64,000 nt of DNA, taken from Argopecten irradians. Its lineage: Eukaryota; Mollusca; Bivalvia; Pectinida; Pectinidae. The position numbers and the translations under genes are program-made. The notes under the pieces were generated by a model. The model saw only the letters and a program-made list of their open reading frames with translations. It did no database searches and was not told the DNA's origin. The stretch covers positions 40,502,996-40,566,995 of the forward strand of contig NC_091143.1 of assembly GCF_041381155.1 (NCBI RefSeq), given 5' to 3'. Of this stretch, positions 31,566-56,642 are shown piece after piece. Each line of letters starts with the position of its first letter. The first letter of the stretch is position 1.

Positions 31566-34500
31566 CTAGGCTGGAGGCGGTTTTGGTTCCTCTTCTATCG
31601 CTGAAGGTAGATAATACACATTTTGTCGAATCTTATGTACCTTATCACGAATATTGATAAATTTTCAAATAGTTTTTCATTGACGATTGTCCATGGTTGT
31701 TTTGCATTTCTCTGTTGTTGAATTTTTAAAACAAAATTATAACTAACATTTTCAAATGCTATAGAAAATTATGTTTTTTTTCTGTACTTACTTATAGTTT
31801 GATTAAAATACACGAAAAGAACAGTAAGCATATATATGTATGACTTTATACATTCTCAGATGCTTGATATTATTATGAATCGATTTTAATGAAAAATTGA
31901 TAGGAAATGTATACAATTTTATAAAATGCTTACTTACTTTCACAAAGCATGTCAGAGAAGGAAGCTTGCATGCTGTCCAGATCTACATGACTCGACGCGG
32001 TAACTAAATGTTCCTCCACTGGAGTGTCAAGGACATCGACGAGATCATCAAGTTCAAGGTCGTCACCAATAGCGACGACAAATACTTCTATCTTCTCTGA
32101 CCTTGCCTGGACAATTTCATCAATAACCTTATCGAGATCCGTCGTACTATCGTCGATGAAGATGACAGCTATTTTTCTGGCCTTTTTTCGTCCGCCATAT
32201 GCAGCCGCGTATCCAACGTCCTTCATGTCATTTAAGATGTCTCTCGAAACCTCATTGGCGTTTTTCAGATCGGAAACAAAATCTTCTTTTGATTTAAATT
32301 CATTGAGATATATGTCCTTTTCATTGCAAATTCCACGAAATAGACCAGCTTGCATGGTCCCATCGTCCATGTTTCCAAAGTAACCAGTGACGTTCGCAAT
32401 CATGTTCCGGACATGCGCTGATCGGTATGAACCCATCGCAGCTGAATCAAAACCAAACATGACATCGGTGGGGCGCCTTGCTGCGCAATAAGGAAGAACC
32501 TTTTCCGGAGTTACTGCAACAGAAGAAAGCAATTATTTCAAAGAATCACTAAAAAGTCATAAAAATGCAACTTTATGAACCACTATAAATAATTGGTTTA
32601 TGTCAATAATTGTTCTTGTGTCATTTTGGATATGTTGGTAGGCTTTAGTGATATTTAAGTTTGCCATTGGTAATTTACTTTACGAAATCAGACTAAATGC
32701 ATTTAAAGATATATCAACTTCAGCAAAATGTCGATCCCGTTCACTGCCCTACCAATAGCGGGCTAGAATTGAAAATTGAGCCTGCTATCCCTGTTGTATT
32801 GTCTTTAAAAGGCGACTACATACGGGATCGTATATATTTCGATTCTTCATGAATTTCTAAATTTCCTAACGTCTTCCTGGACATCGCCCCACATTTGGCC
32901 ATGAATGAAGTCATGTCCCGTGCAAAAATGTTCCGAGTTCTGTCCTCTGGCCGAGAAACACCTTAGTCATAAAACTCGTAGTGTCAACTTATAGTTTGTG
33001 TGTTAGTCAGTTTATAATGTTAAAGGATGGATGTACTTCTCGATGTCTTTGACAGTATTCTTCAGTGAAATAACTCTACAAACTTAGTTCCACATACAAA
33101 GTCTAAAGAACATTTCACAGTTCACATTTCACATTTCACAAGCACACAACTTATCACATAAAAGGGAATGTGGCTTTCAATAGCCTTAACAGAGTTAATA
33201 AGCCATTCAGCATGATCGAACAACCAACGATTTTGTTCATGTCATTTAAATTATAATGTTTTAGTCGCAATATCATAGCGGAGAGCTTTAACCTCACTGA
33301 ATCATACTATCAATGGCAAAAGAAAGAGGCCAACCCGGTCAGATTATGCTGCCAACGAGTACTGTATAGTTTTAATATATTCGCGTTTTTTTCATTAATT
33401 TCGATAAATTCGGGAATTAAAATAAATTCTCGAAAATAATTACACATCGCTTTTTGTCACGTGAATGATGGTTTCAATAACTATTAAGTTGTTTGGTGAA
33501 AAGAAACCCCCGAGAATAAGTTCTGAACAGTAAATCGTGAAATTTTACACCGCCAAAAGTAAGCAAATGTACAGGATACTAACCGCTCCTATTAATTAGC
33601 GTTATATTTTAGGCTTACATGTATAAAGATTTGGTCAGGAGACGCATTATGAAACAATAAAAACATGCAATGTACCATCTGTTGAATTTTGTCATCCCTG
33701 ATAATGAAGTAATTAAGGACAGTGATATCAAATCTTATATTTCACCTATACTAGAGGTAAGCCTCGATACGCCAGGGGTTCTGATCTCTTACGATCTCTA
33801 CACCCCTGGACTATCGCATAGTCAAACTGAAGGCAGCTCAGGGGAACAAATCTGAACCAATCACAGGTATGCAAAATTTTTCTTTGAAGACTACAGAGAG
33901 AGCGACGCCCAGCTTCAAAGCCACGCAGTTAACCGCAGTGTACCACTATACGTCAAAGGACTAAAATACATGTTCTGTTCTACTGACTTCAGTTTTACTT
34001 TGAGCTAATCCAGGGGTATAGGGATCGTAAGTGATCGGAACCCCTCGAATATGGAGGATGGAGCGATGTTACCACCTTAGTGTATAGTATGGCACATTAT
34101 ATCGAATTTGATATCTCACACACAGCATAATGTGAAGATTCTTTTATTAGAATTTAATGTCTTTACTCCATTTGATACTATTTTACTTCTGTTCAATTGA
34201 CAATTTCACACATATAATTCTCGTCGACTTTATTTTTTTCTTTAAATATGTGGTTAAAGACTACACAAGATCGTGTATAATGTTTTAAGATTAAATCAAA
34301 GATTATATTAAAGATTCAATGTAACCTAAAGTCAAATTAAACCCCACACTTTGTTGTAACTATCTAATTCTGCTGTCACATCAGTATTCAATTAAAACCT
34401 ATTGATTAATTAAGCTACTGCTGCTGAAGTTGGATTGTTTGCATCCAATCAACAACAGTCGTAATTAAGTAATATTTTGGTTGTGAGAACAAATAGAACA

Positions 34501-36619
34501 AATTATCGGTACTAGGACAAGCCGAGACTGTGGACATATTCTTCACTACTTGTGCCACATTATGATCTATCAGAGTAACTTCTCTTTAAATCACTCCGTC
34601 AGTACTGACGGAGTATCACGTGATTACTCCGCCAGAGTGACGGATTGATGTTAAATTCAGATACTGTGATACGTCCTAACATATCACTGTCGTGTATGTT
34701 ACTCATAGGATATTGTTACGAAACGAAATACACTTACCACGGCATGCTTTATAGGCCAGCGTCCCTCGGATTTCATTCAAAACGTCATATCCGGCGACAG
34801 AGAATACAAATTGGTCTGACGGTTCACTTCCAATATTCCTAAGCTCAGTGATATTGGGATTATCACCTATGCCAACAGCAAAGACGAACACACCAGTCTT
34901 CTTAAGGAGTTCAGCTTGTAATTCTGTTTCTTTCCTATCCGACGATACACCGTCCGTCAAAACCACAGCGATCTTGGTAACGTTCTTCCGCGCTTTCGTG
35001 AATTCCCTTTCCCGGAGTTTCCTTAGTGCGACTCCGGTGTGCGTAGACCCAAGCAAGTGCGGAATGCGTCCGATAGCTTTTTGTAGATCCTTGGTATTGT
35101 TGTATTTGTCGAATTTTATGACCCGATAGTACCGGTTTGAAAACAGGGCCAGACCTACCCTCATTGCAGAAGGGCCAATTGGGAACAGACTGACAACATC
35201 CTGTAAGAATTTGCGTTGAATCCTGAAATTTTTTATCCATATACTAGTGGAACTGTCTACCAAGAAAAAGATGTCGGCTGGATTACCATCGCACCCTAAA
35301 ATGAAACAACTAATTTTTATTTCGGGCATTCCATACCTTAGAATGTCACTACATCATACCGTTTAGCCGGTTATTTGCGCGGACTAAATTTTTCGCTATT
35401 CGATCTAAAAACGAGAAAATCATATGTTAGCGATTTTTAGAATATTTGCAATATGGCTTTTAAAGGTAGATATCATTCAACCATTTCTTATTGTGTCGTG
35501 GATCTAGTTTTCGCGACCATGGCAATATGCCACGAAATCGCGAAAATATCATCTCCGCGAAAATAATCGGCTTTATGGTACATTGTATTTGAATACAAAT
35601 CAGATTATATTAACGTGATTACTGTAAGCCTCTTCATTTTCGCGAGATAAATTTTCGTGTAATTCATCGAGAGTGCTTGAACGCGAATTCAAATGTGACG
35701 CGAACAATTGTATAAACCGTATTATGAATGCATGACCGATATCATGAGACCATTGCTGCGAATACATGTAGATGTATTAGGGAAAATTTCGACAACAACC
35801 AAGATATGAAATATTGTATATATGCGAAAATAAGTATTTTACAATCTTACACCAAACGGAGCTGCCGTTTCGTCAGGAACTGACTTAATGCGAAATTTCA
35901 CACACTGACATTCCAAGTCCCTAAAGATCGCCGAACTAATTAGAAAGTTTCAGAATGATTAACCTGACAGGGAATCTAACTATTTACCCTTCGGTGACTC
36001 ATTGTCATACAGATAGACAATTGAGTCATGACATTTGAAAAAAAAAATCAACATACTTGCAATAACCTTTAAGCATCATACGGCATTTCACAAAGTATCC
36101 AAAATGAAGGGAACACGTTTCAGCATTAATTGTAAAACATGATAAAACAGAGGCAACGACGAAATATACGTCATTAATATCCTGGCCAAAACCAAATTAT
36201 GCAATGCAAACTTGCAATTTATCTAAAATATCCAATTTTCTATAATTTGAATTCAACTTACATACAAAGTCATCCTCATCATTCTCCGGGTTGAATGTGC
36301 TGGCTCCTGCGACCTATTCAACAGTGTGCATTTAAAATATAACATCACTTACGTATTAAATGTTTTTGATAAATATTCATTTTTTATATTTTGCAAGTAT
36401 AAAACAATAAAAAAGAATCTTCTGATCATATTTTTGAAGCCGTTCTTAATATTTAATGAAATATTGGAGTTTTTAAATAGTTTACCAAAATAGAACCATA
36501 TTTTCTTATCTAACAATCATTTTTGATACATAAGAAAAGATAAACAATATATATATATATATATATAGATATATATATATAACAAATACCAAAAGAAGAA
36601 ACACTACACATCCTAGCAT
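31566..36619 (-). CDS. Gene A: secreted two-VWA-domain matrix protein, PTMP1-like (5 exons, 416 aa)
   Basis: Exons (minus): 36619-36590, 36313-36262, 35295-34738, 32513-31938, 31600-31566, all with GT/AG borders; they join in frame to 1251 nt ending in TAG. The start gives a signal peptide (MLGCVVFLLLVAGAS) followed by an acidic NPENDEDD stretch. VWA domain 1 spans about residues 29-213, bracketed by cysteines, with a complete MIDAS: DSSTS (41-45), THTG and LTDG. VWA domain 2 spans about 222-405; its MIDAS is degenerate (FDSAAMG). The tail is short and acidic/proline-rich (TIEEEPKPPPA). N-glycosylation sequons NNT, NVT and NIT lie in domain 1 and NVT in domain 2. Family knowledge: mussel PTMP1 is a secreted two-VWA protein of the byssal thread matrix that binds collagen. 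Naming this gene after it is inference; other molluscan matrix VWA proteins are possible. Exon 1 is the least certain part (donor GTATTT), but it matches the 30-nt, phase-0 first exon of gene C. Confidence 0.82.
33772..34046. mobile_element. MITE with hairpin-bearing terminal inverted repeats in intron 3 of gene A
   Basis: The left arm (33772-33810) and right arm (34010-34046) are inverted copies of one ~38-bp sequence. Each arm itself starts CCAGGGGT and ends ACCCCTGG or similar, so each could fold as a small hairpin around a TTACGATC core. There is no coding capacity. A solo left end of the same family lies at about 30650-30735. The whole element sits within intron 3 of gene A. Confidence 0.75.
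34593..34614. repeat. Perfect 22-bp palindrome in intron 3 of gene A
   Basis: ACTCCGTCAGT is followed directly by its exact reverse complement, with no spacer. Related pieces (ACTCCG, GTGACGGA) follow at once to about 34647, suggesting the tip of a small inverted-repeat element. The function is unknown. Confidence 0.85.
35360..35700. repeat. TTTCGCG-rich dispersed repeat in intron 2 of gene A
   Basis: Clusters of TTTTCGCGA / CGCGAAAAT motifs stand out from the A+T-rich surroundings, with a TTACTGTAAGCC junction at about 35620. The same motif set and the same TTACTGTAA / TTACAGTAA junctions recur at 62290-62515, 62840-62945 and about 37900-37975, which suggests one dispersed family with imprecise borders. 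Confidence 0.5.
36548..36580. repeat. AT microsatellite in intron 1 of gene A
   Basis: An AT/TA dinucleotide run, interrupted once by GA, lies just inside intron 1 of gene A, about 10 nt beyond the proposed donor site. Confidence 0.9.
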
Positions 36620-36677
36620 GTTGTCTCTAGACGCTGAGGAATAGCGTTTAACTGATTCAGGGATATTCATTTGAATA

Positions 36678-36695
36678 CATATAGCAGACGTCTGC
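36678..36695 (-). promoter_or_regulatory. Candidate TATA-like element and 12-bp palindrome upstream of gene A
   Basis: On the minus strand a TATATG run (36683-36678) lies about 60 nt before the gene A start codon, right after a perfect 12-bp palindrome GCAGACGTCTGC (36684-36695) with a GACGTC core. A second TATATAAT-like run lies further upstream near 36810. Either could be the TATA box; neither matches the context seen at genes B and C. Promoter function is inference. Confidence 0.3.
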
Positions 36696-37096
36696 ATGCC
36701 TAATTAACTACCAGTTACTTACTTACAACTTTATCCGTTTGATCAAATCAATGTTTTTTTTCTGTCCATTGTCGTCATAGTGAGCAATCTTTTACGCCTG
36801 TGTCATTATATATGGATGTAAATGTGTTTTGGTCTGTAGACCATGAGTGGAGGTATCCTTCGTTGGTGTTGATTTCTAATTCCTCCAAAGATAAACATCT
36901 AAAAATTAGATAAAATGTAAGTCTGTTTTTCTTTGTCTTCCATAAGTGAAAGAGTGAAAGAGTGAAAGGGTCATGTCAACGATAGTATACTCTCACTACT
37001 CCGAACTTAAACATCTTCAAAGAATTACGATGATGCATATACGTGTGTTGTCCTTAATCCCAAATGCTAATTAATAATCTATATTTTTCGAAATAC

Positions 37097-37448
37097 TTGA
37101 AGATGTTCCACCGTTAACAGAACATAAGCAATACTCATCATTTGAAGAATAGCTGGTGTTTACTCATGTAAATGTTTGTCTAATTAATACAAAAATAATA
37201 TAAAATAACTTGTTTTGCTTTTGGTGGATGCGTAATCAGTACTTCATTTCATATAGGGCATGGACTTTTTCAGGACGCAAGTATTTTTTATGTTTTTTAT
37301 CGTGAAGTACCACATGAAGCTCACACTTTTCAATGGGGGTAATGGTGTAAAGTAAGTAACTTTTGTAACTGTAGAATACTACTTATTCATTTGAACCTGC
37401 TTTTTATATAGAAAAACATACTATTCCCCAACAGTGGAACATCTTTAC
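37097..37448 (+). mobile_element. TTAA-type MITE, family T2, copy 2
   Basis: It is collinear with the copy at 26787 and of almost the same length; the ends are diverged (TTGAAGATGTTCCACCG, GTGGAACATCTTTAC). It lies about 0.5 kb upstream of gene A's start, in the region between genes A and B. Confidence 0.8.
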
Positions 37449-39115
37449 CTTAACGAACGACACACAGAAATATGCTTAAAGTTTTAGCAAATGTCTTTTT
37501 GTAACATTTTGAATATCAACTTATGAATTTTAAATGAAATGTACATTATATATGTTACATAAATATCCAGCGATTTCGCTCGTGTAATATTTTTGCATAT
37601 ATCACTTGTATTATATGACCTGGAGCGAATTCTATTGGCTGAAAATTCATTAAGACAGAAATAATAACATGACGCCAAGAAAAATGACGTGACGTCAGGA
37701 TTTTGAGAACGACGGGGCAAAATGGCGACCTCCGCTTGATTTTCGCATTATATTTTTACGTGGGATACTTTAAAATGTAGGTTGTATGTAGTTATGTATT
37801 GAAAGGTATCTTGAATTTGTGTTCATTTTATATGATTTTCTGAAACTCGTCTCTAAGTTTTGATGTTTGGTCCCATCATATTTATCTGCTTACTTAGCGG
37901 CGACTTTTCACGGTTTCTTATCAAAATACGCGAAAAAATATTGCGCTCGAAAATAGATTGGTTTACAGTAATGATATGTAAGGTGTGACTTACATTGTTT
38001 AAAAATTACGATTGTTTTCGCTAAGGATTATAGTAATTGCATATAACATGTGTCACATGGAATTCATGAATAATTTCTTGCTGATTATAAGGACATTTAT
38101 CGTTAATCGATTGTTGCCTCCAACATTTCACATCTAGACTTACACAGTCACGCCCTAAGTGTGATCGGCCAATTTCAGCTGTTTGGCAGGCGATAAGAGC
38201 ATTTGTTTCTGCAGCGCCACTTTAGTGTTGGTAAGTACCATGATTACATGGTCTAATGATATCTGTATTATTATGATAATTATAATTATGATAATTATCC
38301 CATTAGAGACTTGTTGATCACAGAAATGCTTTTGAGACAGCAAATATACAATGTATATAATCGCTAACGTCACGTTATTGTAGGAAGGCATTGAAAAGAA
38401 ATTTAAAAAAAAAATGTATCTCATGATCTATATTATTCTGTTGCATAATTGCGTAAAATGTTAAAACCTTAAAATATTTCGTCTGAAGACGTAAGACACG
38501 ACAGAAAGGCCTTGCGATGATGTTACGCGTTCTGTTTTTTTATTTGTTTGAAAATAAATATATTCAGATAATATGATTTCTGTTAACCAATGTTAAAGAC
38601 TACACTTAACATCTGTTAAGGAGACAGACAGCGATGTACATATATGTGTCATACGAAGATGTTTCATTAATAAAGTTATCAATGATAGTGAAAATCAACA
38701 TTAGACAATATCATACATAAAAATCGATTCAAAGAAGCAAAGCAACAAAGAAAATAAATTTTGAACAGATCGAGAAAATTGAGAGTTAATCTGATGCATT
38801 ATCTTAAGTGGAAAGAAGAAATTCATTTCAAACATTGTCTATAAGCATGCGCCTTTGCGTAACCTCCTGTATATGAGTGTTGATATCGGTATAAGCCGAT
38901 TTGTTGCTTCATATCATCTCACAAAAGACATGTCGAAAATTTACATAACTGTTAATTTGTGACTCAAAAGAACTTCATCAAAATGTATGAAATTAAACAA
39001 AACAGCATTATAATATCCTATTATCGGTTATTTGCACGGGTCAAAATTTATTTTTATTCAGCATTAAAATAAGATATAGATAAAATCTTACATATACAGT
39101 TCTAATTCTATTTTC

Positions 39116-39345
39116 GGGTGATCGGATGGTATAGTGGTTAATGCACTCGCCATTCACCTAGCCGACCGGTGTTCGATCCCCAGCACGGGCGTGAAAAAGT
39201 CAGGGGTCATCTGCTCGATCACGTGGGTATTCTCCGGGAACTCTTGTTTCCTCCCACTCTTAGACCCCTTGCGCGCTTTCATTCGGGTCATCGAAACTGA
39301 TTTTATCAGTTGCACAACTTGTTTCCCAATCGATGTAAAATTTCA
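39116..39345 (+). mobile_element. tRNA-derived SINE, family 2, intact-looking copy
   Basis: The tRNA-like head has A-box-like TATAGTGGTTAATGC and B-box GGTGTTCGATCCCC, then GGCGTGAAAAAGTCAG, a TCTCCGGGAACTC block like that of SINE family 1, and a tail ending AATCGATGTAAAA. It lies between genes A and B. I do not call it a tRNA gene, because the arms do not close into a cloverleaf and the body continues well past tRNA length. Confidence 0.75.
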
Positions 39346-41469
39346 TTATGTTAAATCTTATATAACCTATTACTCACTTCCATTCATTTAAATAGCATTG
39401 ACTAATAAAACGAGGAAATTATATATTTAAGCGGTTTAAAATATTCGCAATTAGCCTGTCAGGGTATATTTGATTTTTTTTCTCAATTTTTTCAATGGAT
39501 CAAAGCAATGTCATGCGACACAGCGAATCATTCCGTTAAAATAACGGGCTATATATTTTGCATTTTCTTTTTTTCATTTTTAACTCTGCAGGCAAACTCA
39601 CTGAACCCTATCTGTCAATGGTGCGACCGACATGTGTTTCCAATAACATTCATAACTCCATAACCCCAATAACATTCATAACTCCATAACTCCTAAATAT
39701 GCTTCGCCTGACACTCTCCCTTGCGAGTCTTGATCTAGCCCACAGAGTGGGGGTTCCCCTCAATGGTTTAGTCACGATCACAGCGGAAATGTATTCTAGG
39801 CATTCATCATATGTCTATTTATACTTTTATTGTCGGTAAACAAAATAACAAAGGTATTATGCTATCTGATTACTCGTCGTGCAGCATTTCATAATTCCCT
39901 TCTATTTGGTACTTATTCATTTTTATATTTCATTTTTTTATCTTTTTTTTTCTATTTGTGATATTTTTATCGCATATGTATACAGTTCAGAACAAATGAA
40001 AGATCACATTTGCTAATTTGTATAGATATACTCTTTAGCCGACAGATACCTTATCGAATTCTATTCATGTAGTATTCCAAAGACGAACATTAGGATATAA
40101 TTTTCAGCATTTCTATTTTTTGCAGTTCTGCACAATATTTGGAATTATTAGCATGTTAGTATTTTCTTCACATGTGATGCTGTCTATATAGCAAGTAATG
40201 AACAAAATCTATGATATTATTATTTATGAACTATTAACACCGTTTTTTTCATTACTTGCAATGTACAGGAGATTCTTCTATTTCTAATTGCGTTACTGCA
40301 TATCATATTAAATGATTTTTCATGGTTCGATCGACAACCACACGAGATAATTATGCAAAAAAAAAACGAAAATACTAGTTCCTTTAACTCATTTTGGGAT
40401 AATAAATACAGGCAGTATTTTATTTTCGAGACTTTAATTTCGCGTTTTATTGTCTTTGCTTTAAGTGCTTTGGTTTTGAAGAAAGAAGATGTCTAACATT
40501 ATACGGAAGGGATTGAAACAAATTTTCCTATAGAAACTGTATACGTAATGACAATTTCCAGTTATGTTTAATGTCACACACAAATAAAAGACCTGTCAAG
40601 GTATTGAAGTGGATGTGAGCCAGAGTTTCCTGAGAAAATTCTATCGATGCTCGACCGAAACCTAGTCCTGTTATGATTTCACTGAATACCACCATTGAGG
40701 GTATTTCGTTTTTCTAATGGTGTTTGGCAATGTAGTACATTATATGTGTCTGTGGTATTACAAAGGCATCCGAACAAATTTTCACCTGGTTTAATCCATG
40801 TATATTAAATATCTTTTTACCTTTTTCCTTGGTACAAAAGGTTCAATATAAAAATAGACACGTACATCTTTCATGGATTATTAATATGCGATATCATTTA
40901 AAAATGTGTTTTTCTTTTTTTTTTTTTACATTCAGTACTAATTAACACACTACGCGATCTCTCACACCCACGGTATGTCTACAGTCAGAAAATGTGCATA
41001 TTCTACACATATTTGATTAAGTGGTTTTTATTTTTCCCTAAATATACATTTGAGTTCATTCATTCCAAAAGCCTGATGTTACATACAGAGAAACTATGTG
41101 GCCTTTTGCTCCTATCCATCTATCACGTGATAAAACGTAGTACCGTATGGACTTCGCACGTGCCGGAAAGAGGTTGGGGAAATTACATATCAATGAGGAA
41201 TGTCGTCACAGAAAACGTAGTAAACATTCTATAAACACATTGTTGCTATGATCCTTGACATTTTGACCCTTAATATGCCATGTGCACACACAATACGTCG
41301 TAGCCTCGTTCTGAGTCTGCTTCATTCGTTCAGGAAGGAGCGTCACAGCCTTGTTGACCCGGAAGGTCAATCCATATTTGAGCATATCATGAATAAAACC
41401 TGCATAACTTGCAACATAACATACGCCTTTGATTTCCGGGGTGGTTTTAAACGTGAAGTCATCCACAGG

Positions 41470-41477
41470 TATTTAAG
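41470..41477 (+). promoter_or_regulatory. Candidate TATA box of gene B
   Basis: TATTTAAG lies 114 nt before the gene B start codon within ACAGGTATTTAAGT. Gene C has nearly the same string (ACAGGTATATAAGT) before its own start. A transcription start near 41500 would give a 5' leader of about 80 nt. No transcript evidence is available. Confidence 0.55.
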
Positions 41478-41583
41478 TCCCGTTCTCTTTTCAAATGTCA
41501 GCAAACTGCAAACATACCCAAAGACGTAACAAGTAATAATTAGCATTAATCCGGACTCTCATTATCGACTCTTTGCTTCTACA

Positions 41584-44008
41584 ATGACGATGGACGTAAT
41601 TCTTCTTACTATAATGGTAAGCATATTTAGTAAACTATGGCAAGTTTATCCAATCATTTAAGTGAGTACTATGGCGATCCATGATTACATAATTATCCAA
41701 CTAGGTTCATTTGTAATATACATGCTATAGCTAAAAATGAAAATGGTAACAATGTTTTTTTTGTTTTTTTTTTTTGTTTTTTTTGCAAATTTTCTATTTT
41801 AATCTCTCAAAAATAAAGATAAATATAATGTGTTGTGTTCCGTTTCAGATGTTTACAACTGTATTTGCTGCACCAGCTCAGCCACAGACTCAAGAAGACG
41901 TGTTTATATGTAAGTTGATATTATATGTTCGTTATATTAAAACTGTTCTTCACATCGAACTCTTTAATTTTGCAAATGATTCATTTTAATCTTAGAATGT
42001 CTCATTATCTTGCTCACATCATTTCAAAATATGATTTTTCACTTCAATAGGCGAAAATCAGCATTTTATAAGCAATATATTAAGCAGAAAAAGTAAACAA
42101 TAATAGAATAACTATTGATTTTATGTTACAGTATGTGACGGGAATCCGGCAGATATTTTCTTCCTCTTGGATAGTTCCTCTAGTATCTGGGAACGCGACT
42201 ACAACAAACAGCTTAAATTTATCCAGAAAATCGTCGACTTCTTCCCAGTATCATCTACAGCCACAAGATTCGGAGTGGGCATTTTTGCTGACCGCTACAC
42301 GCAAGTGATCGGCTTCGACGACTTTGACAATGCTGATGATCTAAAACTCGCTATTGGTGGTATTGAAAAAGGTCTTGGGGATACTCAGACAGGGCGAGCC
42401 CTACGACAAGTCAGGAGGCAGGCTTTCAGTCAAGCTAGACCTGGCGTTGGACACGTTTTGGTTGTGCTTACTGATGGAGTATCGAGAAATACACAAGAGA
42501 CCAGAAGAGAAGCTGCCCTTCTGAAGGCACAGGGTATCCATGTGTTTGCCATTGGAATAGGAAATGCGTTGGATACGAACGAACTTGAAGCTATTGGCAG
42601 CGACCCCAAGGAGACCCATGTGCATGAAGTTGCGGACTTCAACGTTTTAAATAGGATACGCAACAAACTGGCCTTCCAAGTTTGTAAAGGTAAATTTGAT
42701 CGTATTATCTTTTGTTTGTAATTTGCGTTGTGATATGTAATCTAAGTTATTTATCTTGTTCTGAATGCAATGTTTTTAGACTTCAATAAATTATATAAGT
42801 CTATCATGCTGTTCAATTATGAAGAAAATGAAACTATGAGATCGGTACAATATCGTTTTAATGTCAATTTTTGTTGTTTTCTATTCTAAAGCACCCATTG
42901 TAAAGACCAGAGGTGTTTTTAAATTGACTCTTTCTTTCCATAACCATTGTCTAACTATTCCACGTAGATTGTTAATATCAACATTTTTTTCTTGAAGCTC
43001 AAGGACCTGAACCATACTGCAGCGCTGGAATGAACACAGATGTTATGTTTGCCTATGACGCTTCCAGTATGGGGACGAAAAATTCCAGACATGTACAAGA
43101 GTTCATTGGTGACACAGTTCAGAGCTTCGGCAACATGGATGACGGCACTATTCAGACTGGCGTGATATCTGGACAATGTCACGGGGATAACGTCAACTTG
43201 GATGAATTCAACGACCGAGAGGCCATGGCTGCCTACGTAAGAAACAACGACTTCACGGGGGTCGACGAGATTGTGCGAGACATGCATGAGAACAGTTACC
43301 AGGCAGCAAGAGGAGGACGGGAAACAGCGAGACGCATTTCTGTCGTCATAGTGGATGAAAACGTCGAAAAAATTAGGAATTTGGAGAGAGAGATGAAGAA
43401 GGCGAAGTCAAAGAAAGATATCCAGTTTGTGGTTATTGCTGTTGGTGAAAGTTCTGAGTTTGATGTTCTGAAGCCACTTGTGATGAAACCAACTGAAGCC
43501 TTCTTCTTTGAAGTTCCATCTCATAGCGACATAGGAAATATCAAGGGCCAATTTGTGGACAGCTTGTGTGAAGGTAAGTTATTCAATATCATACATATTA
43601 TTTAACAATATATATTTTATTATTTAGGCCTAAGCCTCAAAGTATCGGTTTAAGGTGTAAATTTGATTATAACGAGAATGAAAATAAACATCTAAAATAT
43701 ATATAATGTTAGCAATATCTGTTATAAATCTGAACGAGTTAAAACATGTTGGTCATTTTGTTTATTTGCACTTCTCAATATAGTTGTGTAAACTAAAAGT
43801 TCATGTAAGGTTATGACGTATTAATTCCTTGGACAATTGAATCAGTTTAATGATAAAAATGATTTTTTTGTAATATTTATGGTGTATTTTCACGAAGATT
43901 ATTTTTACTCTTTCAGGTTTCAAAGTACCCGGCCCTAGAGGACCAAATAAAGTTTATTACGACAACTTCGAGGATATCGTCCCAATCAGCAACCTGATCC
44001 TTGACTGA
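41584..44008 (+). CDS. Gene B: secreted two-VWA-domain matrix protein, PTMP1-like (5 exons, 439 aa)
   Basis: Exons: 41584-41616, 41849-41909, 42132-42689, 42998-43573, 43917-44008, all GT/AG, joining to 1320 nt in one frame ending in TGA. The signal peptide is split between exons 1 and 2, with likely cleavage near VFA-AP (about residue 18). A short Q/T/E-rich linker leads to VWA domain 1 (about 33-216), which has a complete MIDAS: DSSSS (45-49), Thr118 in TQTG and Asp146 in LTDG. VWA domain 2 (about 225-408) has YDASSMG where DxSxS is expected, so its MIDAS is degenerate. The 30-residue tail carries PRGPNKVYYDNFED with paired tyrosines. Cysteines bracket both domains. Known family: mussel byssal PTMP1 has two VWA domains and binds collagen; assignment to that family is inference from architecture and size. 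A TATA-like box and an AATAAA frame the gene. Gene A lies divergently upstream, gene C convergently downstream. Confidence 0.88.
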
Positions 44009-44502: not shown

Positions 44503-44508
44503 AATAAA
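44503..44508 (+). terminator. Candidate polyadenylation signal of gene B
   Basis: AATAAA lies about 500 nt after the gene B stop codon and is followed by a T-rich stretch. An earlier variant, ATTAAA at about 44278, is an alternative. Confidence 0.4.
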
Positions 44509-44712
44509 ATTAATTTTTATCAAAATTTGTGTTTGTATTTTATGTTGCTTTTTTTTCAAATGAAAAAAAGTCTGCCTGTCTTCGAGTTTTATTTGCACTT
44601 CTCACAGACAAAATTAAGACATAAACGTTGACTATGATAAACTACTCTATTACATTTTTGCAGCGAAATAAAAGGTTTTAATGTAAACATAAAAGCGATA
44701 TACTTCACTCCA

Positions 44713-44740
44713 GTGAAAATATCAATTTTGATATTTTCAC
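44713..44740. repeat. 28-bp hairpin downstream of gene B
   Basis: GTGAAAATATCAA and its exact reverse complement are separated by two bases (TT). It lies about 200 nt beyond the candidate polyadenylation signal of gene B. It could be a remnant of a small inverted-repeat element; no function is evident. Confidence 0.8.
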
Positions 44741-46726: not shown

Positions 46727-47524
46727 TAGGCCCACTACTATAAACGTTTACCGCTCTCTAAATGTTAGCTTATATGCATATTGTTGTTTCAAACACTTCA
46801 ATAAATATTAGAGATATCTATTACAAGTATTGTAAAGCTACAATTGTAGGATTCCGTTTCATTGATATTTCGAAACACCCAAACGTACATTGTGTAGGTA
46901 TAAGTAAGGAGGGCCTACTATATCGCCGATTCACAGTAGGCCTAGATAACGTACAGGACTTGTCTGTCCCGCGAGGTGTACAACAATGCATTGTCGTGCT
47001 AGGTCGTTTTGGTTAAACTTATCCAACGAAAGACAGATGTTGTACTGATATATCCTATCCATTTGCGTACAACCAAAGATGTTAAAAATACAAATAGGAT
47101 GTAGATCTACATGTTGTAGCGAACTGCACAGACTCACCGACACACACTCACCGACACACAACATGTAAACATTGCGACGTCATCGGAATGTGCAAAACTG
47201 TACATTGTACAACATTGTTTATTTATCATACCCACGGAAGCATTGCTAAAGGAGGTACGGTAGTAACATAAACAATGTAACTTTTCTACATTTGTATTTA
47301 CACACGTACATGTATATATGTGTTGAAACCTATTTTGATACCTACATGTTCATCGAACGTACGTTCGGTCCTGAAAACACCAAAAGTTTCTGATTTTGAC
47401 CATTATAAATTCATTCGCGTGGCTCCAAATTGCGCGTGACATACTCAATCTATCGAGAAATAAAGTTGAGTAGCCTTTGGTAGAAATCAACGGGGTTTAT
47501 ACTATCAATTCACCACTGACTGTA

Positions 47525-47700
47525 AATATTTTCGCGTAAACAAAATTTTCAATACATTCGCAAATACATAAATTCGCGATCAAGGGCTGTTACTAACAAG
47601 CAGGCATTCATGTAATAATTAATGTTTTATACCATTATCTGAGTACTACACGAATTCGCGAAAAATTGTATTTTCCGAATATAAGGTGGTTTATAGCATT
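47525..47700. repeat. TTCGCG-motif dispersed repeat
   Basis: It contains TATTTTCGCG, AATTCGCGATCAAGG and ATTCGCGAAAAATTG, resembling 62290-62515. Borders are uncertain. Confidence 0.45.
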
Positions 47701-49399
47701 GTTCATCATATGTTTCTTACAATTTTAGTTAAATGCCAATAGCCGAGTTGCCGACATTGACTACATATGTTATGATGAAACGTAGCAAAGGGAGTGCGCG
47801 TGTTGTTGATAAATCATGTAACTAATGCGTTTAGGGAGTTGTCGGTTAAAGAAATCTAGTTACAAGTATAATAAGTAGCTACAAAAGTAAATCAATGTAA
47901 ATCAATGTGATATCATCATTAAAGGAAGAGCTTTACACTCTTTATACTTTCTGTGTTTAAAAAAACGACAGGAAAAACATTAAAGTAAGACTGAGCGACA
48001 TCGTACGAAGAAAATTAGGAATTTTAAGATTAAATACATGTATATACTGGTGGTTGGCAAAAACAAATAATTTAATATACTTATTTTTTCATTTCCCTGC
48101 CACATTTAAACTACAGAAGGTTTGTTTAACAACTGCAATTATTATTTTTGTAGAATTTACAGATACACTGTAAGTAACATGTTTATTTAAAAAACCGGAG
48201 TTAGTATGTCGGTCTAGCATCGCACAAAGACCGTAGAGTTCGTAGTAATTTTTATTTCCGTAAAAGGCATAGCCATTATGCTTCACAATAACTGTGTGCG
48301 TGACAGTAAATTTAACGAATAGTCGTGCTTATCCTCATTCCATCACAAAGTATACTATAGCGTTCAAAATAGTTTTGATTTGTCAAACGATTTTCTCTCT
48401 TGGTTGTAATACTTAGGTAAAACAGACAAAGGGAGATAATCAAATATATTCGTGTAGTTTATTATCAGTCAGTATTACGTACACACGCACACATGAAGAG
48501 AAAATAGGGACGGATATAGACAACAAAAATGACTGCCTGGTGACACAAAAAAACCCGCTCTAACCCGAGTTACTACCACTCGCTATATCCACCTCTAGAT
48601 TATCTCATAATAAAATTGAAGGCTCTATTTTGACACGATATGATTGAGTAGTTTGATCACCTGTTTTACATCAAAATAAAGGAATAACGTGATTGGTCAG
48701 TGTTTTTCCTCCGGGTTTACTATGATATAAGCCAGGGTAGTTAAAAACACAGTGACAGTAAACTATGCAGTATCGAAAATGCAGTTGTAGAAATAAAAGT
48801 TGAAGTGGATCAAATAAAAACTACTTTAATTTTACTTAAGTACGAAAGATTTTATGAGATATTAGATTGAGTATCTAAAAATAAACAAATATAATGCCTC
48901 ATAAACATTAGTTACAACATATGATTTATGAACTGTAAAATTATTTTATGTCATATGTATGTTGAGATGGAAACATACCTGAAACATACTTTACTATTAC
49001 TGATATTACTAGCTTCATGGGCTGACCGTGTGTACTCAATTCAGTGCAGTGTAAAAATGTAGATAATTATACTGTTGGTTTTTTGGTGGGTTTTTTTCCT
49101 TAATGTTGATTGGATTTTTTTTTAATTTTGTCGTTGTTGTTGTTCTTGGGTTTTTTGTTGTTTTTTGGTATTATATTATTTGTACTATATTGCGATTTAT
49201 TACAAAAAAAAATTAGCTCTTATTTTTACTTCTTAAGCTCTTATTTTTACTTCTTAATTAAAACGTATGCTTTTTTGAGTATGAAAATTACGGCATATAT
49301 AACTTTTTACACACACGTCGTTACTCATCTCTAAATGACAACTGTTATCCTGTCATTTGACCTAGTCTCATCATGTTTGTTTGATTAAATAAACGTACT

Positions 49400-49760
49400 A
49401 TTAAGGACGGCCTCCAATGTGCGTGGTGTGTTGCGTGTATGAAGTGCGCGGTGTGTGTTTCGGGATAATGCGGTATTCGTGTTGTGTCTTCTTGTATTGT
49501 GGAACTCTTGCTCTTTTTATAGTGCTACAAATGTATATCACCGAAGTGTGTCGCCGAACACACCAGGAAAGGCAACATACCACACAGTAACATTATACTG
49601 ACAACGGGCATACCAGTCGTCCCACTCCCTTTATGCTGAGGGCTATGTATGAGCAGAAATTACCGCTTTTATAGACTATGGTGTGTCTCAGTCAGGAGAC
49701 AGAGCTCACAGGGACGAGTGCTTAATCGAGCTCCAAAAGTGAGTTGGTGTCAATGGAGAC
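49400..49760 (+). repeat. Dispersed repeat, GGACGGCCTC family, copy 2
   Basis: It begins TTAAGGACGGCCTCCAATGT and runs through GTATTGTGGAACTC and CATTATACTGACAACGGGC to about 49760. It is longer and better preserved than the copy at 5698. Similar sequences are, from memory, common in bivalve genomes; a retroelement fragment is possible but unproven. Confidence 0.55.
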
Positions 49761-50769
49761 TTTAGGAAATGAAAAGTAAGTTAGGGAAAAAGAAAAAAGA
49801 AAATCCTAAATCAAGTCCCCTTTAACGATCATGCAATAGAGGAAGGTACATTTCAAATGCCCTACCTGCATGGCAGGCGGTAAGTAGACATACGTATACA
49901 CGATAAAACAATATAATATACAACATTTATATTTCATATAATATAACATTTGATTAAGACATGAAATGCTGATTTATCAAACGTTTCCGTTTTGAGTATA
50001 TCATATCATGGTTTAGGCCTTTAGATTAAGAACACATCTATTGTTCAATACAGTTGTACATTCAGTATGACAATTACTATGATTTACTTCAAAATTGGAA
50101 GTATTCGTGGAGTGGATTTATTTTCTTATTTTGTTTCCATTACTATAAATATCCGCGAATATATCAACACACAAATACATCAACAAATTATGAAATATGA
50201 CTTAATACATTATGGTTGCAAATCGCCGAAATTATCATTCCACGAACAGTTTGAAAACTGACGCAGCGAAAATATCCACATGCAAAACAATCCAATTTTA
50301 CAGTATGTATGTGAACAATTAATTTTGTTCAACCCAAAGTACTTCAAAAGTAATTCCGTTCTCACACTCAAATTTGTATCCTAAGTGGATTAATCATTGT
50401 AAATACCACTCATATTATGTAATATATGTTCGGGCCTTATACTTAAAAATAGTTGTGGTGGATAGACTTATAATGTAGTGAAGCTGTAATTTGTTCGATC
50501 CCCGCTGTCTCTGTTGGACACTCATCCCGTGGCTGCATACAGCGAACTGGTCTTGATGAAAGTCACATCTGTTGAGTTCTTAGGAAAGGTAGGTAGCATC
50601 AACATATTCTTCATTTTTTGCTAATAGGCTGATGTATTAAACTACAATACTATATTTGCTAATATTTCTATGAAGTATATTTTGTAAGTATTTAATTTTT
50701 TTCAACAACATTTTCTATTATGACTCATCATCATAATCCTCCTTCTAATCACTATTATCAATCCAGTGA

Positions 50770-51093
50770 TTAAAAATCCTCCCCCGCCGACGAATGGTAT
50801 ATTTTCTCATTCTAAAACAAGAGCATTAGTTTTAGTATTTTTCTTCAGTTACAAAAGTTACCTACTTTACCTAAATTCAAGATAATAATATTAAAAGTAA
50901 TCAATTGCATCCGAAAAATTTCCATAACACTATGTCCTATATGGAATTAAGTACTCATTGTGTATGCACCATTATTATTATATGCATTTTTTGGGTTAGT
51001 TACTAGTTAGACACATATAAACACGATTATACATAAGTTAATGTTCAAGTGATGAGTATCGTTTATGCTATGTCGGCGGTGGAGCATATTTAA
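50770..51093 (-). mobile_element. TTAA-bounded MITE, family T2, copy 3
   Basis: The reverse-oriented copy ends TCGGCGGTGGAGCATATTTAA at the right and has GTTACAAAAGTTACCTACTT inside, the reverse of the family marker. It is somewhat shorter (324 bp) and diverged at its left end. Confidence 0.75.
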
Positions 51094-54000
51094 GGTACCC
51101 CAATATATCATAGGGTCATCTGGTTCTAATGTTAAAAAAGTCAAAAATGTTCATTATGCTCTCTTACTCTTCGTTCTCATTTTCATCATTCTCGTCATCG
51201 TCATCCTTATTGTCATCAGTCGAAAACCCATTCAGGTCAGTTAAAGATGTACCACTTAGTCATCAATACTCATTTGTCTACGAAGAAATTAGTTTAAATC
51301 TTTTAAAACCTTTATCTGTATTCAGATTGCATAACTGAAACCGCAAGATTTCTGTAGATTGTCTTTATTATGTTTGATGGATGGCATGGAAGAGACTACT
51401 TTAGGCCTACCATGCTGTTCAATCTTCAAGCTAGGCAGCTGACCACCCATATTGTTCGCTGTATGCATTGAAAATGGTCTAAAGATTTTATCTATGTAAG
51501 GATAAATTTCAATTTCGTAGTCTTTATATTCCATTGGGCGAAACCTACCTTTAATATATAATCTACCTACTTGTGTATAAATGAACATAATATTTATGTT
51601 TATTTACAATAAAATGTTTTAAAATGAAATATGTTGGAGAGACACAATATAATGTTGTGTTTACTGTTAATATGTTTTGATGAAAATTGTACTATACCGG
51701 ATTTGAGATTGCTAAAATAGGTTTTGCCTGATGCCAAATTTTTTTAGCAATTTAAAATTTGTTGAATTTTGAATAATTTTTAGCTTTAAGCCTAAATTTA
51801 ACTTTTAAATATTCGATGACGTACCTGAGGCTAACAGTGCTCTGCATGGTTCGCTGACAGAATTTTCTTTAGCGTAAACGTATAATTTTAATAATAGTAA
51901 TGCAACTGAGCAAGTATTGTCCCTACGGTATATCATTAACATCACATGCGATCGTTATTGTGACGTTTTGATGTGCATTTTAAACTTTCCTAATCCTTTT
52001 TCATTGTAGCATGAAGATTCCCAACTGCCCGGACTAGCTTGCCATTGATTACAATTCCAGAACATTATGAGAACATTATGCTAGTTGGAAACCTGACACA
52101 TAAAGCTTAGAAGCATAATCTCAACGATGCCAAATGAAACTACGTAGCTGTCTTAACTAGGAAATATATTTCATAATATTTGAAATAATCAGTGAATTGT
52201 AAATAAGGGGTATACATCACTAGTTTACAAAGTTTACATTTGTGTCCCTTCAGAACAAAACAAAATATTCTGCATGAAAATTCTATGAGATCATCTGTAC
52301 ATTTGTATTTTCCACCCTTGGGTTCAATAATATTGAAAGGGTTAAAGGTCAAAACTTTCAAAAATGTCTCAAGACCTTCTGACATTTGGCTTAAGGCTGC
52401 AACTAGTAAGTTTAATGTCTTGTTATGAATGTAAAAAAAAACTTTTGTAAATGGTATGTGAACCCAGAATATACGTTGTTAATATGAAATAGCGAGAAAT
52501 TAGAAATTATACCAGATAGGCCCTCAATAAAGCAAAAGTAATGATTTCATTTTTCCATTTCCTGTATTTAGTATCTGTGTGTCTTTTATTTGGATTTTCA
52601 CAAAACTAACAAGAATATTACATTCGTCATATAATATTAAAAAATATTGTCTATTTGATGAATTTTCGTTGAATACTTATGTGTTCAAGAACGTTCTCAA
52701 TAAGCATGTATCCCCTTATCTTCTTTCATAAAATATGTTAATAGTTCCTTACTACTCGAAACTATGTTATACAGTAGGTATTTAACGTGGCATCCCTAAA
52801 GCCACTTTTAAACTCTCTTATTTCTTAGACTGGAACAATTCATTATAGGATTTCAGGGATGAAATTTTATATTTTGTACCGAAAAGTAAGGTTTGAATGT
52901 GTTTGTTGACAATTTGCGGCACCTCATATCTATATATGATTATGATGGTAATGAGAAACCCATGTACCTGTCAAGTGACACTGATGTATATATCCGCCTG
53001 TTCACATAATTGCATTGTTATTGTAGCTTCTGCTCTTGAACTGACAAGTAAGTATAACACAATTACAACTTGTACACAACCCTCTTAAAAGTCTAAATTG
53101 ATTTGTTGGTTGTTGCACAGCATCCAAGAGGTATCGAGAAGTTAACATAAATCTTTACATAAACATTCAAAACAAAGGGAGATTACTCGGATGAACATGT
53201 TAACATCAAATTAAAGCTATCGTACATTGATCAAAGGTTTGCTATATAACTTGTGTATATAATGATCTTGATAAGTGCATAACTACTTCTCAACACGGTC
53301 ACCAACTCATTTATCGTAGTTTTATAATACATATAAATAGTAACGAATAAAAACTAAAGTTCAACATAAACCTGCCTTAGAGAATTTAAAGGTTTCCACT
53401 GGAGTGAAGGCGTCAGATCAAGTCTCCACATTTGTTTGCTAAATAAGAGTATATCAAAGTATATCACAACAACAATTCACATATTTTAGTCAGTACTTTT
53501 TTATTTAATATAAAAAAAATAAAAAAAATAACAAATGTAAAGTTCAACATGACAATGTATACAAGTGTAAAACATTTAAATAGTTAAGCGTTGATTTATG
53601 TGTTTGAACCATGTACGGCATTTCATGCCTCATCAATGGTAATGAAAGGAATCAGCAAGGCATGTAATAAATAATACAATTTGTTTTAAATTAATTGTGA
53701 CAAGCAGTTCTGAATACAGACGTATTCTATGAAGAAAATGTTCAATAATTTGTATCATAAACCAATGATAATAACGATGATTATAATGATAAATTAAGAT
53801 TCTGTCCAATTTATAAATCAATAGTTCATGTCAGTCCTGGTGGCGGCGTATTTGCTTTACATATATAAAAGCAAGTTTCATTTCACATCGAGTTAATCAT
53901 CCGGCGTTTAGCTGTTATGTAACCATATGATGCAAGTCGTCAATGGACTCTTTCCAAAACACTGTTTTCATAAAGTTCCAATCTAATGGCACGCTTAATA

Positions 54001-54137
54001 ATAACCTTCCTTTAAGAGACACATCATTTTCAAAGCATCATGTTATATCATCGACTTCATGTTACTCAATTTACTTTTAAAAAGAAGGTCAATGTCGAAG
54101 GTGAGTAAAACCGCATTCCGATGTCAATTTCCACTAT

Positions 54138-54143
54138 TTTATT
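54138..54143 (-). terminator. Candidate polyadenylation signal of gene C
   Basis: AATAAA on the minus strand lies about 115 nt after the proposed gene C stop codon. Another lies at 53505-53500. Confidence 0.35.
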
Positions 54144-54258
54144 CCATCCTGCCGGCCGGATGACCGATATATTTCAGTACTTTCGTTTTTACCACTCAAA
54201 GACGATGTCCAATTCTCTCTGGCACTTCTCATTTCTCCGTCCGTTGTGTCTGATCGTG

Positions 54259-56642
54259 TCATTCGTAGTCAGGTAAAATTGACATTTCTGAAAAGAGAAA
54301 GATGACCATGAATTAATTTTCTACAGGAGAAATACATTTTGTGCAATTTAGCAAATGAAATTTTGATCTTTTTGAGTGTTAAATTGATTGATTTTTTTTT
54401 TCAATGCATCCTTTTAATTTTACTTTTACGGAAGACTTTTTCATTTGTTTTTCTTTATTACTTTCTATGCAAGCAAACATACATATACATATCAAAATAA
54501 TCTGTATTTGAACATTGAACACTGATTGTGACGTCATGTGCTTATTAGTGTAATGTGAATTTTTTCACAAAAGTCGACATGAATTTCGCTCACAAAATGA
54601 ATATATTATTCTGTAACATGCAAAGACGAAATACATCTCAGTTGAATGTTTATCAGCAAATATTAAAGTGCTAACCTTGACAGAACAACTCGGAGTATTC
54701 CTCAGCGACGGAGTCCAGGTCAGTGTATGAAGAAACCATCATCAGATGATCCTCTGGAGGATTGGAACAGATAGCGCCCAATATTTCTTCATCCACCTCA
54801 CCAACACCAACAACATACACCTTAATTCCCATGGCCTTAGCTATTTCGGATTGTACAATAAGCTGGTCGAATTTCTCTACGGTGTCGTCCACAAAAAGAA
54901 CGGTTATTTTCCTTGCGTTTTCGCGTCCTCCCCTTGCGACTGTGTAACTATATCTATGCAGCTCTTCCACGATGTTGTCCAGACCACGAATATTCTTGTT
55001 TCGGACAGCGCTGGACATCTCTTCCTTGTTAGTGTACTGATTAAGATCAATTCTATTGTTTTCACAATGTCCAGATAACATCCCTGCTCTGATCATTCCT
55101 TCGGCCATGTTTCCGAATTTCCCCACGACATCACTTATGAAGTTGTGTGCGTGTCTCACGTTCTTCGTTCCCATTGAAGCTGAGTCATAAGCGAACATCA
55201 CATCGGTCTCCATTTCCGCACTACAGTAAGCTTGGTATTTGGGAACTGACAGTAAAGAAGATGAATTTAAAATACATGCTTATTTCATCTGTCTTAAGTA
55301 TAATTAGAAAATCTTAAACATTCAATTTCATTTAAATAATCAACAATTACATAACTTTGTAACACAATCTGGTATTGACTTAGTCAAAATATAAAATAGT
55401 TTTAAGACTGAAGATATTTTTACCCTAAAGTTTGCGGTCGGGTTCTTTTATGTTATACAGTGTGGACATTATTATAATTAACATTTCCTCACCTCTACAG
55501 ACTTTCATCGCAAGTTTTTCCTTGATAGTCTCCAATAAGGTGAAATTTGCAACTTTAGAAACAAATTCATCACTGGGTTCGCTGCCAATCGCTTGAAGTT
55601 CCTCCATGTTGGGCCCCTTTCCGATCCCAATGGCAAACACGTACACCCCTTGTTCCTTGAGGAGTCTGGCCTGCCTCATGGTCCTCTGTGTGTTTCTGGA
55701 GGCCCCGTCGGTGAGGACCACAGCGACATGGGCAACACCTTGCCTTGCATTATGCTCGAACTCTCTCCTCACGTGTCCTAATGCTCGACCAGTGAAGGTG
55801 GCGCCCAACATATGCGGGATCCTTTTTATTCTGTTTTGTAGGTCTTCAACGTTATCGAAGTCTCCAAATGATATTTGTGACCTGTACAGGTGGGAAAATA
55901 TCCCAACACCGATTCTGGTTCTGGTCTGTGAGATTGGGAAGGTGGCGACGATATCCTGAAGGAATTTGAGCTGTTGTCTGTAATGAACGATCCATATGCT
56001 TGATGAACTGTCTAGCAGAAAGAATATGTCTGCGGGCTTTCCATGACAAACTGAAAAACAAATTGATATAAATGAAATAATATAAATAAGTTAATTCCAT
56101 CAAATTAATTAATATTCTTCAAAAAGCTTTCTGTGTGCTTAATATTTTTTATGTTAATGAGTCTCATAGATTTAAAATAATTTCCAAATTGAGCAAAGAT
56201 AATGATAAAACTGAACATTTGTGTGTTTATGTAGAATTCTTTACTCTAATTAAGTTCCAATCTTACATTTTACAACGTCAAGTGGTTCCTCTGTTGTAGT
56301 AAATGGGGCAGCAAAGGCCACAGAAATCTACAAAATAACAGAAATATTTACAAAATGTGATAAATATATGACAAAAATCAATTAAGTAGAAAATACATTA
56401 TTTTTTGTCGCCACATATTCTTTTCCTAAGATTATGACGTTTATAGAGCAAATAAGAAAGTGATATGCAACAATATACAAAGATATAATTCAGATATCAG
56501 GACGATGCATAGTTTTTTTTCGATCGCTCTAGAATGAATTAAAACATTCTTGAATTAAAGCATTTATACCATTATTAAAATAGAGATTATTTATCCACAA
56601 AATTACACTTACCAGTGATAAAATGAAAGTAGGAATAAACAT
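54259..56642 (-). CDS. Gene C: secreted two-VWA-domain matrix protein, PTMP1-like (5 exons, 415 aa)
   Basis: Exons (minus): 56642-56613, 56327-56267, 56050-55493, 55245-54676, 54287-54259; all have GT/AG borders and join to 1248 nt ending in TGA. Exons 2 and 3 have exactly the lengths of gene B (61 and 558 nt). The signal peptide MFIPTFILSLISVAFA is probably cut before APFTTTEE, matching the FAAP site of gene B. VWA domain 1 (about 32-215) has a full MIDAS: DSSSS (44-48), TFTG and LTDG, plus one sequon (NFT). VWA domain 2 (about 224-405) has YDSASMG and a VDD in place of LTDG, so a degenerate MIDAS, and one extra cysteine (ICSNPPED). The tail is only nine residues, EMSILPDYE. By eye gene C is closer to B than to A. 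The function is taken from the PTMP1 resemblance (byssal collagen-binding matrix) and is inference. The last 29-nt exon is the weakest part: an open frame and a good pyrimidine tract support it, but a different last exon is possible. Confidence 0.85.

What the first reader, a model, noticed from the sequence alone, without database searches (positions are those of the whole stretch)
31566..56642. Cluster of three two-VWA secreted proteins with a fixed exon plan, PTMP1-like
Seen: three five-exon genes within 25 kb, intron phases 0,1,1,1 in each, the VWA-1 exon exactly 558 nt in all three and the VWA-2 exon 576/576/570 nt. Known: mussel byssal PTMP1 is a secreted protein of two VWA domains. Inferred: local duplication of a byssal or other extracellular-matrix gene. 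If correct, the byssal thread matrix could be built from several paralogues rather than one protein.
Basis: partly seen in the sequence, partly recalled or inferred. Interest (0 to 1): 0.75.

Follow-up and report, generated by a model that had tools for sequence, protein, structure and literature searches.

The report
Scallop live-dead paired VWA gene cluster
The three neighbouring scallop genes are real and related to each other, but they do not look like mussel byssal-thread genes: they belong to an old family of secreted proteins in which one sticky domain keeps its metal site while its partner has lost it and carries a lone cysteine instead.

Summary
Confirmed: genes A(-), B(+), C(-) each have five coding exons, intron phases 0,1,1,1, VWA-1 exons 558/558/558 nt, VWA-2 exons 576/576/570 nt. 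The genome is Argopecten irradians, bay scallop: C equals a public 415-aa protein; B matches an ORF on a 1,620-nt contig at 436 of 437 residues.

The array is larger than reported: five more VWA loci, about 120 kb in all; D and E look like VWA-Thr/Pro linker-VWA-VWA genes.

PTMP1 kinship is not supported. PTMP1's two domains are each other's sisters (100/99) and both keep MIDAS; 18 places in this genome match PTMP1 better than gene A; Mytilus has its own family member. Against me: Foldseek ranks PTMP1 first, and two of three AU tests do not reject looser groupings.

Family mark: a last VWA without MIDAS but with an extra cysteine, in 50 of 66 multi-VWA proteins and 0 of 140 MIDAS-bearing domains, including gastropods, octopus, an annelid and a brachiopod.

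Best guess, inferred: extracellular matrix or mucus linkers; V1 binds ligand, V2 links chains by disulfide.

The parts
31566..36619 (-). Gene A, 416 aa, coding span
   Evidence: five coding exons, phases 0,1,1,1; orthologue Pecten P0008
36590..36619 (-). A exon 1, start of signal-peptide-like stretch (30 nt); GTATTT donor, the weakest of the set by eye
36262..36313 (-). A exon 2 (52 nt)
34738..35295 (-). A exon 3, VWA-1 with intact MIDAS (558 nt)
31938..32513 (-). A exon 4, VWA-2 without MIDAS (576 nt)
32326..32328 (-). A, codon TGC of the extra VWA-2 cysteine
   Evidence: read; column tested
31566..31600 (-). A exon 5 with stop (35 nt)
41584..44008 (+). Gene B, 439 aa, coding span
   Evidence: spliced product matched by P0006 at 436 of 437 residues
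41584..41616 (+). B exon 1 (33 nt)
41849..41909 (+). B exon 2 (61 nt)
42132..42689 (+). B exon 3, VWA-1 with intact MIDAS (558 nt)
42998..43573 (+). B exon 4, VWA-2 without contiguous MIDAS motif (576 nt)
   Evidence: with a gap allowed its residues could still be lined up
43177..43179 (+). B, codon TGT of the extra VWA-2 cysteine
   Evidence: read; column tested
43917..44008 (+). B exon 5 with stop (92 nt); last residues differ from P0006
54259..56642 (-). Gene C, 415 aa, coding span
   Evidence: 100% identical to P0002 of Argopecten irradians
56613..56642 (-). C exon 1 (30 nt)
56267..56327 (-). C exon 2 (61 nt)
55493..56050 (-). C exon 3, VWA-1 with intact MIDAS (558 nt)
54676..55245 (-). 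C exon 4, VWA-2 without MIDAS (570 nt)
55064..55066 (-). C, codon TGT of the extra VWA-2 cysteine (Cys277)
   Evidence: read; invariant in the 16 rows and the 35 rows
54259..54287 (-). C exon 5 with stop (29 nt)

Best explanation
A, B and C are scallop copies of an old lophotrochozoan family of secreted multi-VWA proteins. Shown: VWA-1 keeps the metal site (MIDAS); VWA-2 has lost it but has stayed conserved and carries one extra cysteine just after strand beta-B, besides the pair at its ends. Inferred: the proteins are extracellular linkers of connective matrix, shell organic matrix or mucus. VWA-1 catches a ligand through a metal ion; VWA-2 is a structural module whose spare thiol makes a disulfide to a second chain or to another matrix protein, so that two catching heads point outward. 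Tandem copying gave variants with different binding faces.
For: MIDAS as contiguous DxSxS: 23 of 24 V1, 0 of 24 V2. The extra Cys: 21 of 24 V2, 0 of 24 V1, 0 of 2 PTMP1, 0 of 73 other VWA domains; 52 of 67 MIDAS-less and 0 of 140 MIDAS-bearing domains in the wider set. V2 of scallop orthologues is as conserved as V1: 81 v 78% (C), 83 v 80% (A), 74 v 79% (B), so it is not decaying. V2 domains are one clade, 100/99 and 100/100. AF2 models give two VWA folds; Cys277 lies in the low-confidence stretch right after beta-B. Precedent: most collagen VI VWA domains lack MIDAS, and cysteines of its C-terminal domains may crosslink chains (PMC3919171, passages). VWA proteins without triple helix are in pearl-oyster nacre and RNAi disturbs it (PMC5597905, passages).
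Against: No biochemistry, expression or proteomics for these genes. Three array V2 domains or relatives lack the Cys in the exact column (Osin_d2, AirG_V2, AirH_V2). C and several relatives have a further Cys in V2, which could pair with it inside the chain. B's V2 still has D, S, S, T and D if a gap is allowed. Gene H has lost MIDAS in V1 too. Secretion is read by eye from the hydrophobic N-termini; no signal-peptide program was at hand.
Confidence: 0.5

Rival explanations
1. Byssal thread matrix proteins like mussel PTMP1.
For: PTMP1 is the best PDB match that covers both domains by sequence after collagen VI alpha 3 (E 2e-29) and ranks 1-5 in Foldseek (E 1e-26 to 5e-25). Two AU tests do not reject looser groupings: V2 with PTMP1 domain 2, p 0.070; V1+V0 with both PTMP1 domains, p 0.073.
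Confidence: 0.07
2. Shell organic matrix proteins secreted by the mantle, binding collagen-like or acidic partners during mineral growth.
For: Ten VWA proteins in P. f. martensii nacre, eight resembling collagen VWA domains, with RNAi effects for six (PMC5597905, passages). In M. yessoensis with shell-boring worms a transcript named collagen alpha-5(VI) is listed as up, 25.04, in edge mantle (PMC6281612, passages); a family member of that species, P0007, bears the same name, but the two were not shown to be one gene.
Against: No chitin-binding domain in A, B or C, unlike Pif/BMSP. Octopus, without outer shell, and an annelid have members. None of the nacre sequences could be compared.
Confidence: 0.2
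3. Humoral defence proteins: tandem copies with diversified binding faces that recognise microbes or help haemocytes stick.
For: PMC3088662 (passages) cites a defence role for a 'matrilin' in zebra mussel haemocytes and a matrilin-like factor in Biomphalaria resistance to a helminth; the Mytilus family member is named matrilin-1-like. The family forms arrays.
Against: Orthologues A, B and C are stable across scallops at 74-83% identity, unlike fast-changing recognition arrays. Whether those 'matrilins' belong to this family was not tested.
Confidence: 0.15

Closest known systems
Unnamed family annotated as cartilage matrix protein-like, vitrin, matrilin-1-like, collagen alpha-n(VI)-like in molluscs (P0002-P0019 and others)
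   Same: Same architecture, extra Cys and MIDAS loss; C itself is one of these records
   Different: Nothing in kind; the public names are mutually inconsistent and describe other families
PTMP1, Mytilus byssus (PDB 4cn8, 4cn9, 4cnb)
   Same: Secreted-type two-VWA protein of similar length
   Different: Both domains with MIDAS, domains sister to each other, insertion after the MIDAS motif, 26% identity
Matrilins
   Same: Extracellular VWA pairs
   Different: No EGF domain found in A, B or C; coiled coil not tested
Vitrin and cochlin
   Same: Two VWA domains at the C-terminus; a lone cysteine in the linker is reported for mouse (PMC3919171, passages)
   Different: No LCCL domain found; lone Cys here is inside V2, not in the linker
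Collagen VI VWA domains
   Different: No collagen triple helix found
Pif / BMSP and nacre VWAPs
   Same: Molluscan secreted VWA proteins
   Different: Pif/BMSP carry chitin-binding domains (PMC7747718, passages), absent here
Slug mucus matrilin-like proteins (Lehmannia)
   Same: Slug relatives of the window family exist (Arion P0068)
   Different: Only a reference title was seen; no sequence compared

Membership tests
Live-dead VWA family described here | MIDAS-bearing VWA followed by a C-terminal VWA without contiguous DxSxS | tested here: met
   A, B and C
Live-dead VWA family described here | Extra Cys after beta-B of the last VWA | tested here: met
   A, B and C; 21 of 24 V2 in the set
Live-dead VWA family described here | V2 falls in the V2 clade | tested here: met
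   100/99 with 24 rows, 100/100 with 18 rows
PTMP1 | Two VWA domains and little else | tested here: met
   Pfam scan
PTMP1 | MIDAS in both domains | tested here: not met
   V2 of A, B and C lack contiguous DxSxS; both PTMP1 domains have it
PTMP1 | Domain-by-domain orthology | tested here: not met
   PTMP1 domains sisters, 100/99; domain 1 with V1+V0 rejected, p 8.9e-5; domain 2 with V2 not rejected, p 0.070
PTMP1 | Nearest relatives of PTMP1 in this genome | tested here: not met
   ranks 19, 37, 79 of 94
PTMP1 | Foot expression and presence in byssus; collagen binding | not testable with these tools
   no tissue RNA, proteome or assay
Matrilin | EGF domain(s) | tested here: not met
   no EGF hit at E 0.01 in A, P0006 (B) or P0002 (C)
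Matrilin | C-terminal coiled coil | not tested
   no coiled-coil program used
Vitrin/cochlin | LCCL domain | tested here: not met
   no LCCL hit
VWA collagens | Collagen triple-helix repeat | tested here: not met
   no collagen hit
Pif/BMSP | Chitin-binding domain | tested here: not met
   no such hit

The most novel reading that the evidence does not exclude
A metal site was traded for a thiol. In the last VWA domain the MIDAS was deleted and, on what should be the same upper face (beta-B to beta-C turn, by recalled VWA topology), a free cysteine was fixed: a reversible metal-dependent catcher (V1) joined to a covalent anchor (V2), inherited since before molluscs, annelids and brachiopods parted, and multiplied in scallops into an array.
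Probability: 0.25. Interest if true: 0.6.

Novelty: new variant of a known kind. Interest (0 to 1): 0.4.

Why it matters
Public databases give members of this family at least six different vertebrate-derived names (cartilage matrix protein, matrilin, vitrin, collagen VI, XXII, XXVIII). A single diagnostic (MIDAS-less last VWA plus the extra cysteine) sorts them out of the very large molluscan VWA crowd: the Pfam search of this genome scored 150 matches, its limit. It also corrects a tempting inference: two VWA domains in a bivalve do not mean PTMP1, and the byssal matrix need not have paralogues here. If the cysteine does link chains, it offers a simple, testable design for metal-dependent but covalently joined extracellular glues.

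Tried and rejected
PTMP1 orthology: rejected as the best reading on four counts, while noting the two AU tests that do not reject looser groupings and the Foldseek rank in its favour.

Matrilin, vitrin, VWA collagen, Pif/BMSP: lacking domains in Pfam.

A further small exon for B to explain LEQ in P0006: none found by a simple pattern; allele, subspecies or unseen splice remain open.

Rfam scan of the window: no match at gathering scores; ARAGORN: no tRNA. Ten of the other open frames in the window against Pfam: nine without a hit, one sub-threshold match to a bile acid symporter model, E 7e-4, below cut-off.

Papers: PMC5700196 (scallop genome) and PMC11291548 (Pif/BMSP) searched for terms and had no occurrence of them. 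A 2014 PTMP1 structure paper asked for by DOI is not held. Searches that showed no paper describing this family in the listings; the library holds open-licence papers only, so this does not show that none exists.

An early note of mine said that all V1 domains keep MIDAS; and 109 corrected this to 23 of 24 (gene H does not). One search, which allows a gap, scores 2 of 24 V2 (B's and Ybal_3_d3) as intact, which asks for the contiguous motif, scores 0 of 24.

Rows dropped: one search left out 2 of 89 domain rows (a duplicate of D's V0 and locus I). One search left out long-branch and bacterial rows, oyster and Mizuhopecten three-VWA rows, the first background set, and loci L030, L038, L046, which are the array itself. 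One search left out domains under 111 residues, and its printout skipped P0033-P0061 and those above P0098; one search counted all 116 proteins, three of them the window's own, of which C is identical to P0002 and B nearly to P0006.
Full report
1. Observation. The three genes are there as described: exact exon coordinates, five coding exons each, phases 0,1,1,1, VWA-1 exons 558/558/558 nt and VWA-2 exons 576/576/570 nt. The introns differ in length: A 276, 966, 2224, 337; B 232, 222, 308, 343; C 285, 216, 247, 388. Blastn between the gene regions shows only short matches of 44-67 bases, so the duplications are old. The equal exon sizes reflect shared ancestry and purifying selection, not chance.

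2. Where it is from. The window is C10:40502996-40566995 of an 846-Mb genome. Gene C is identical over 415 aa to a protein called cartilage matrix protein-like of Argopecten irradians; that record's contig length, 43,336,331, is the length of C10. This also means that an independent annotation built the same splice pattern. For B, P0006 comes from a contig of at most 1,620 nt and agrees at 436 of 437 aligned residues, which supports splicing. That this contig is a transcript is my inference from its length.

3. A larger array. Nine flanking 10-kb stretches were fetched. Around the window lie, in window coordinates: I (+, -30945 to -30355, one weak VWA), H (-, V1 -24658 to -23984, V2 -26857 to -26252), G (-, V0 -7122 to -6394, V1 -9070 to -8402, V2 -10213 to -9626), D (+, V0 72142-72822, Thr/Pro-rich frame 74915-75292, V1 75646-76281, V2 76510-77097) and E (-, V0 89808-89122, Thr/Ser/Pro-rich frame 87572-86124, V1 84929-84294, V2 84221-83637). 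These are open frames, not finished gene models; that V0, V1 and V2 form one gene is inferred from order and strand and from proteins such as P0012, P0013 and P0062 with three VWA domains. One more triplet lies on C9 near 15.41 Mb.

4. Kinship. Tree of 87 domains: the 24 V2 domains are one side of a branch at 100/99; V1 at 92/70, not starred. Second tree of 91 domains with 34 further scallop VWA domains: V2 100/100 (18 rows), V1 99/90 (23 rows, V0 domains inside). In both trees A, B and C V1 with their scallop orthologues form a clade at 100/96. PTMP1's two domains are sisters at 100/95 and 100/99. AU tests: PTMP1 domain 1 placed with V1+V0, p 8.9e-5, rejected; PTMP1 domain 2 with V2, p 0.070, and both PTMP1 domains with V1+V0, p 0.073, not rejected at 0.05. 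So a one-to-one match of the two domains is excluded, but the exact neighbour of PTMP1 is not settled. Among 94 matches to PTMP1 in this genome A, B and C V1 rank 19th, 37th and 79th; of the 18 before A one (G V0) is in this array and the others lie elsewhere.

5. The mark of the family. Contiguous DxSxS is in 23 of 24 V1, 0 of 24 V2, 2 of 2 PTMP1 and 66 of 73 other domains; the exception in V1 is gene H. If a gap is allowed in the motif, 2 of 24 V2 (B and Ybal_3_d3) pass, so B may be less far gone. An extra cysteine follows strand beta-B in 21 of 24 V2 (22 within two columns) and in 0 of 24 V1, 0 of 2 PTMP1, 0 of 73 others. In the wider set from the three protein searches, 50 of 66 proteins with two or more VWA domains end in a MIDAS-less domain with this Cys, 45 of them with a MIDAS-bearing domain before it; 52 of 67 MIDAS-less and 0 of 140 MIDAS-bearing domains have it. 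These are related sequences, found with family members as queries, so the counts describe a family, not independent events. Holders include Solemya (P0062, P0066), Octopus (P0029, P0074), Arion (P0068), the annelid Paralvinella (P0071) and the brachiopod Lingula (P0096, whose first domain also lacks MIDAS). In the 35-row alignment Cys215, 224 and 277 of C are invariant and Cys32 and 405 nearly so: two terminal pairs and one extra. A Trp right after the V1 motif (18 of 24 V1, 5 of 7 V0, 0 of 2 PTMP1, 2 of 66 others) may mark the binding rim.

6. Structure. AF2 models (pLDDT 77.5 and 81.9, pTM 0.54 and 0.53) show two VWA folds with no trusted mutual orientation. In V1 strand beta-B (75-82) is followed by beta-C (86-90); in V2 beta-B (268-274 or 275) is not followed by such a strand, and Cys277 sits there at low confidence. 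Foldseek ranks PTMP1 first, with TM 0.40 and 15 A rmsd over the chain; VIA-align ties it with collagen VI N5 and VWF A3. PTMP1 is thus the nearest solved two-VWA chain in shape, not by descent.

7. Mechanism. Shown: sequence features above, and that V2 is as conserved as V1 between scallop orthologues in A and C (83 v 80%, 81 v 78%) and a little less in B (74 v 79%). Inferred: secretion, metal-dependent binding by V1, and disulfide linkage by V2. The tissue is unknown: shell matrix, mucus, connective tissue and defence are all possible, and the papers seen (passages only) give context, not tests.

8. Verdict. What stands is an old, inconsistently named family with a sharp diagnostic and a testable biochemical idea.

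Noticed in passing
window 60647-61844: Tandem repeat of about 92 bp with a 276-bp higher unit; a 29-bp repeat follows at 62564-62794.
   Followed up: no
C10:40476138-40479011 (L010), gene H: A two-VWA locus in which V1 has lost MIDAS as well (DSSEA, Cys for Thr, FVGN).
   Followed up: partly
L014:915-1292 (+) and L015:2124-3572 (-): Thr/Pro-rich, mucin-like frames between V0 and V1 of D and E; E's open frame is 483 aa.
   Followed up: partly
L050:3053-4915 and L051:575-1225 (C9, 15.41 Mb): A further VWA triplet outside the array; by eye the last domain has the family's Cys and the middle one ITGS instead of TDG.
   Followed up: partly
C16:3.98-4.15 Mb and other contigs: Dense VWA arrays; the Pfam search scored 150 matches, its limit, of 297 candidates.
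   Followed up: no
P0007 (Mizuhopecten): A second B-like gene in Mizuhopecten without a counterpart seen in the stretch examined here.
   Followed up: no
P0001 (Pecten maximus, 717 aa): Looks like two neighbouring C-type genes joined in annotation.
   Followed up: no
P0084 (Patella vulgata): All three VWA domains read as MIDAS-less with the family's Cys.
   Followed up: no
H. rubra P0016, P0018, P0065: Two- and three-VWA members share one contig length, 3,414,598, which suggests linkage also in abalone.
   Followed up: no
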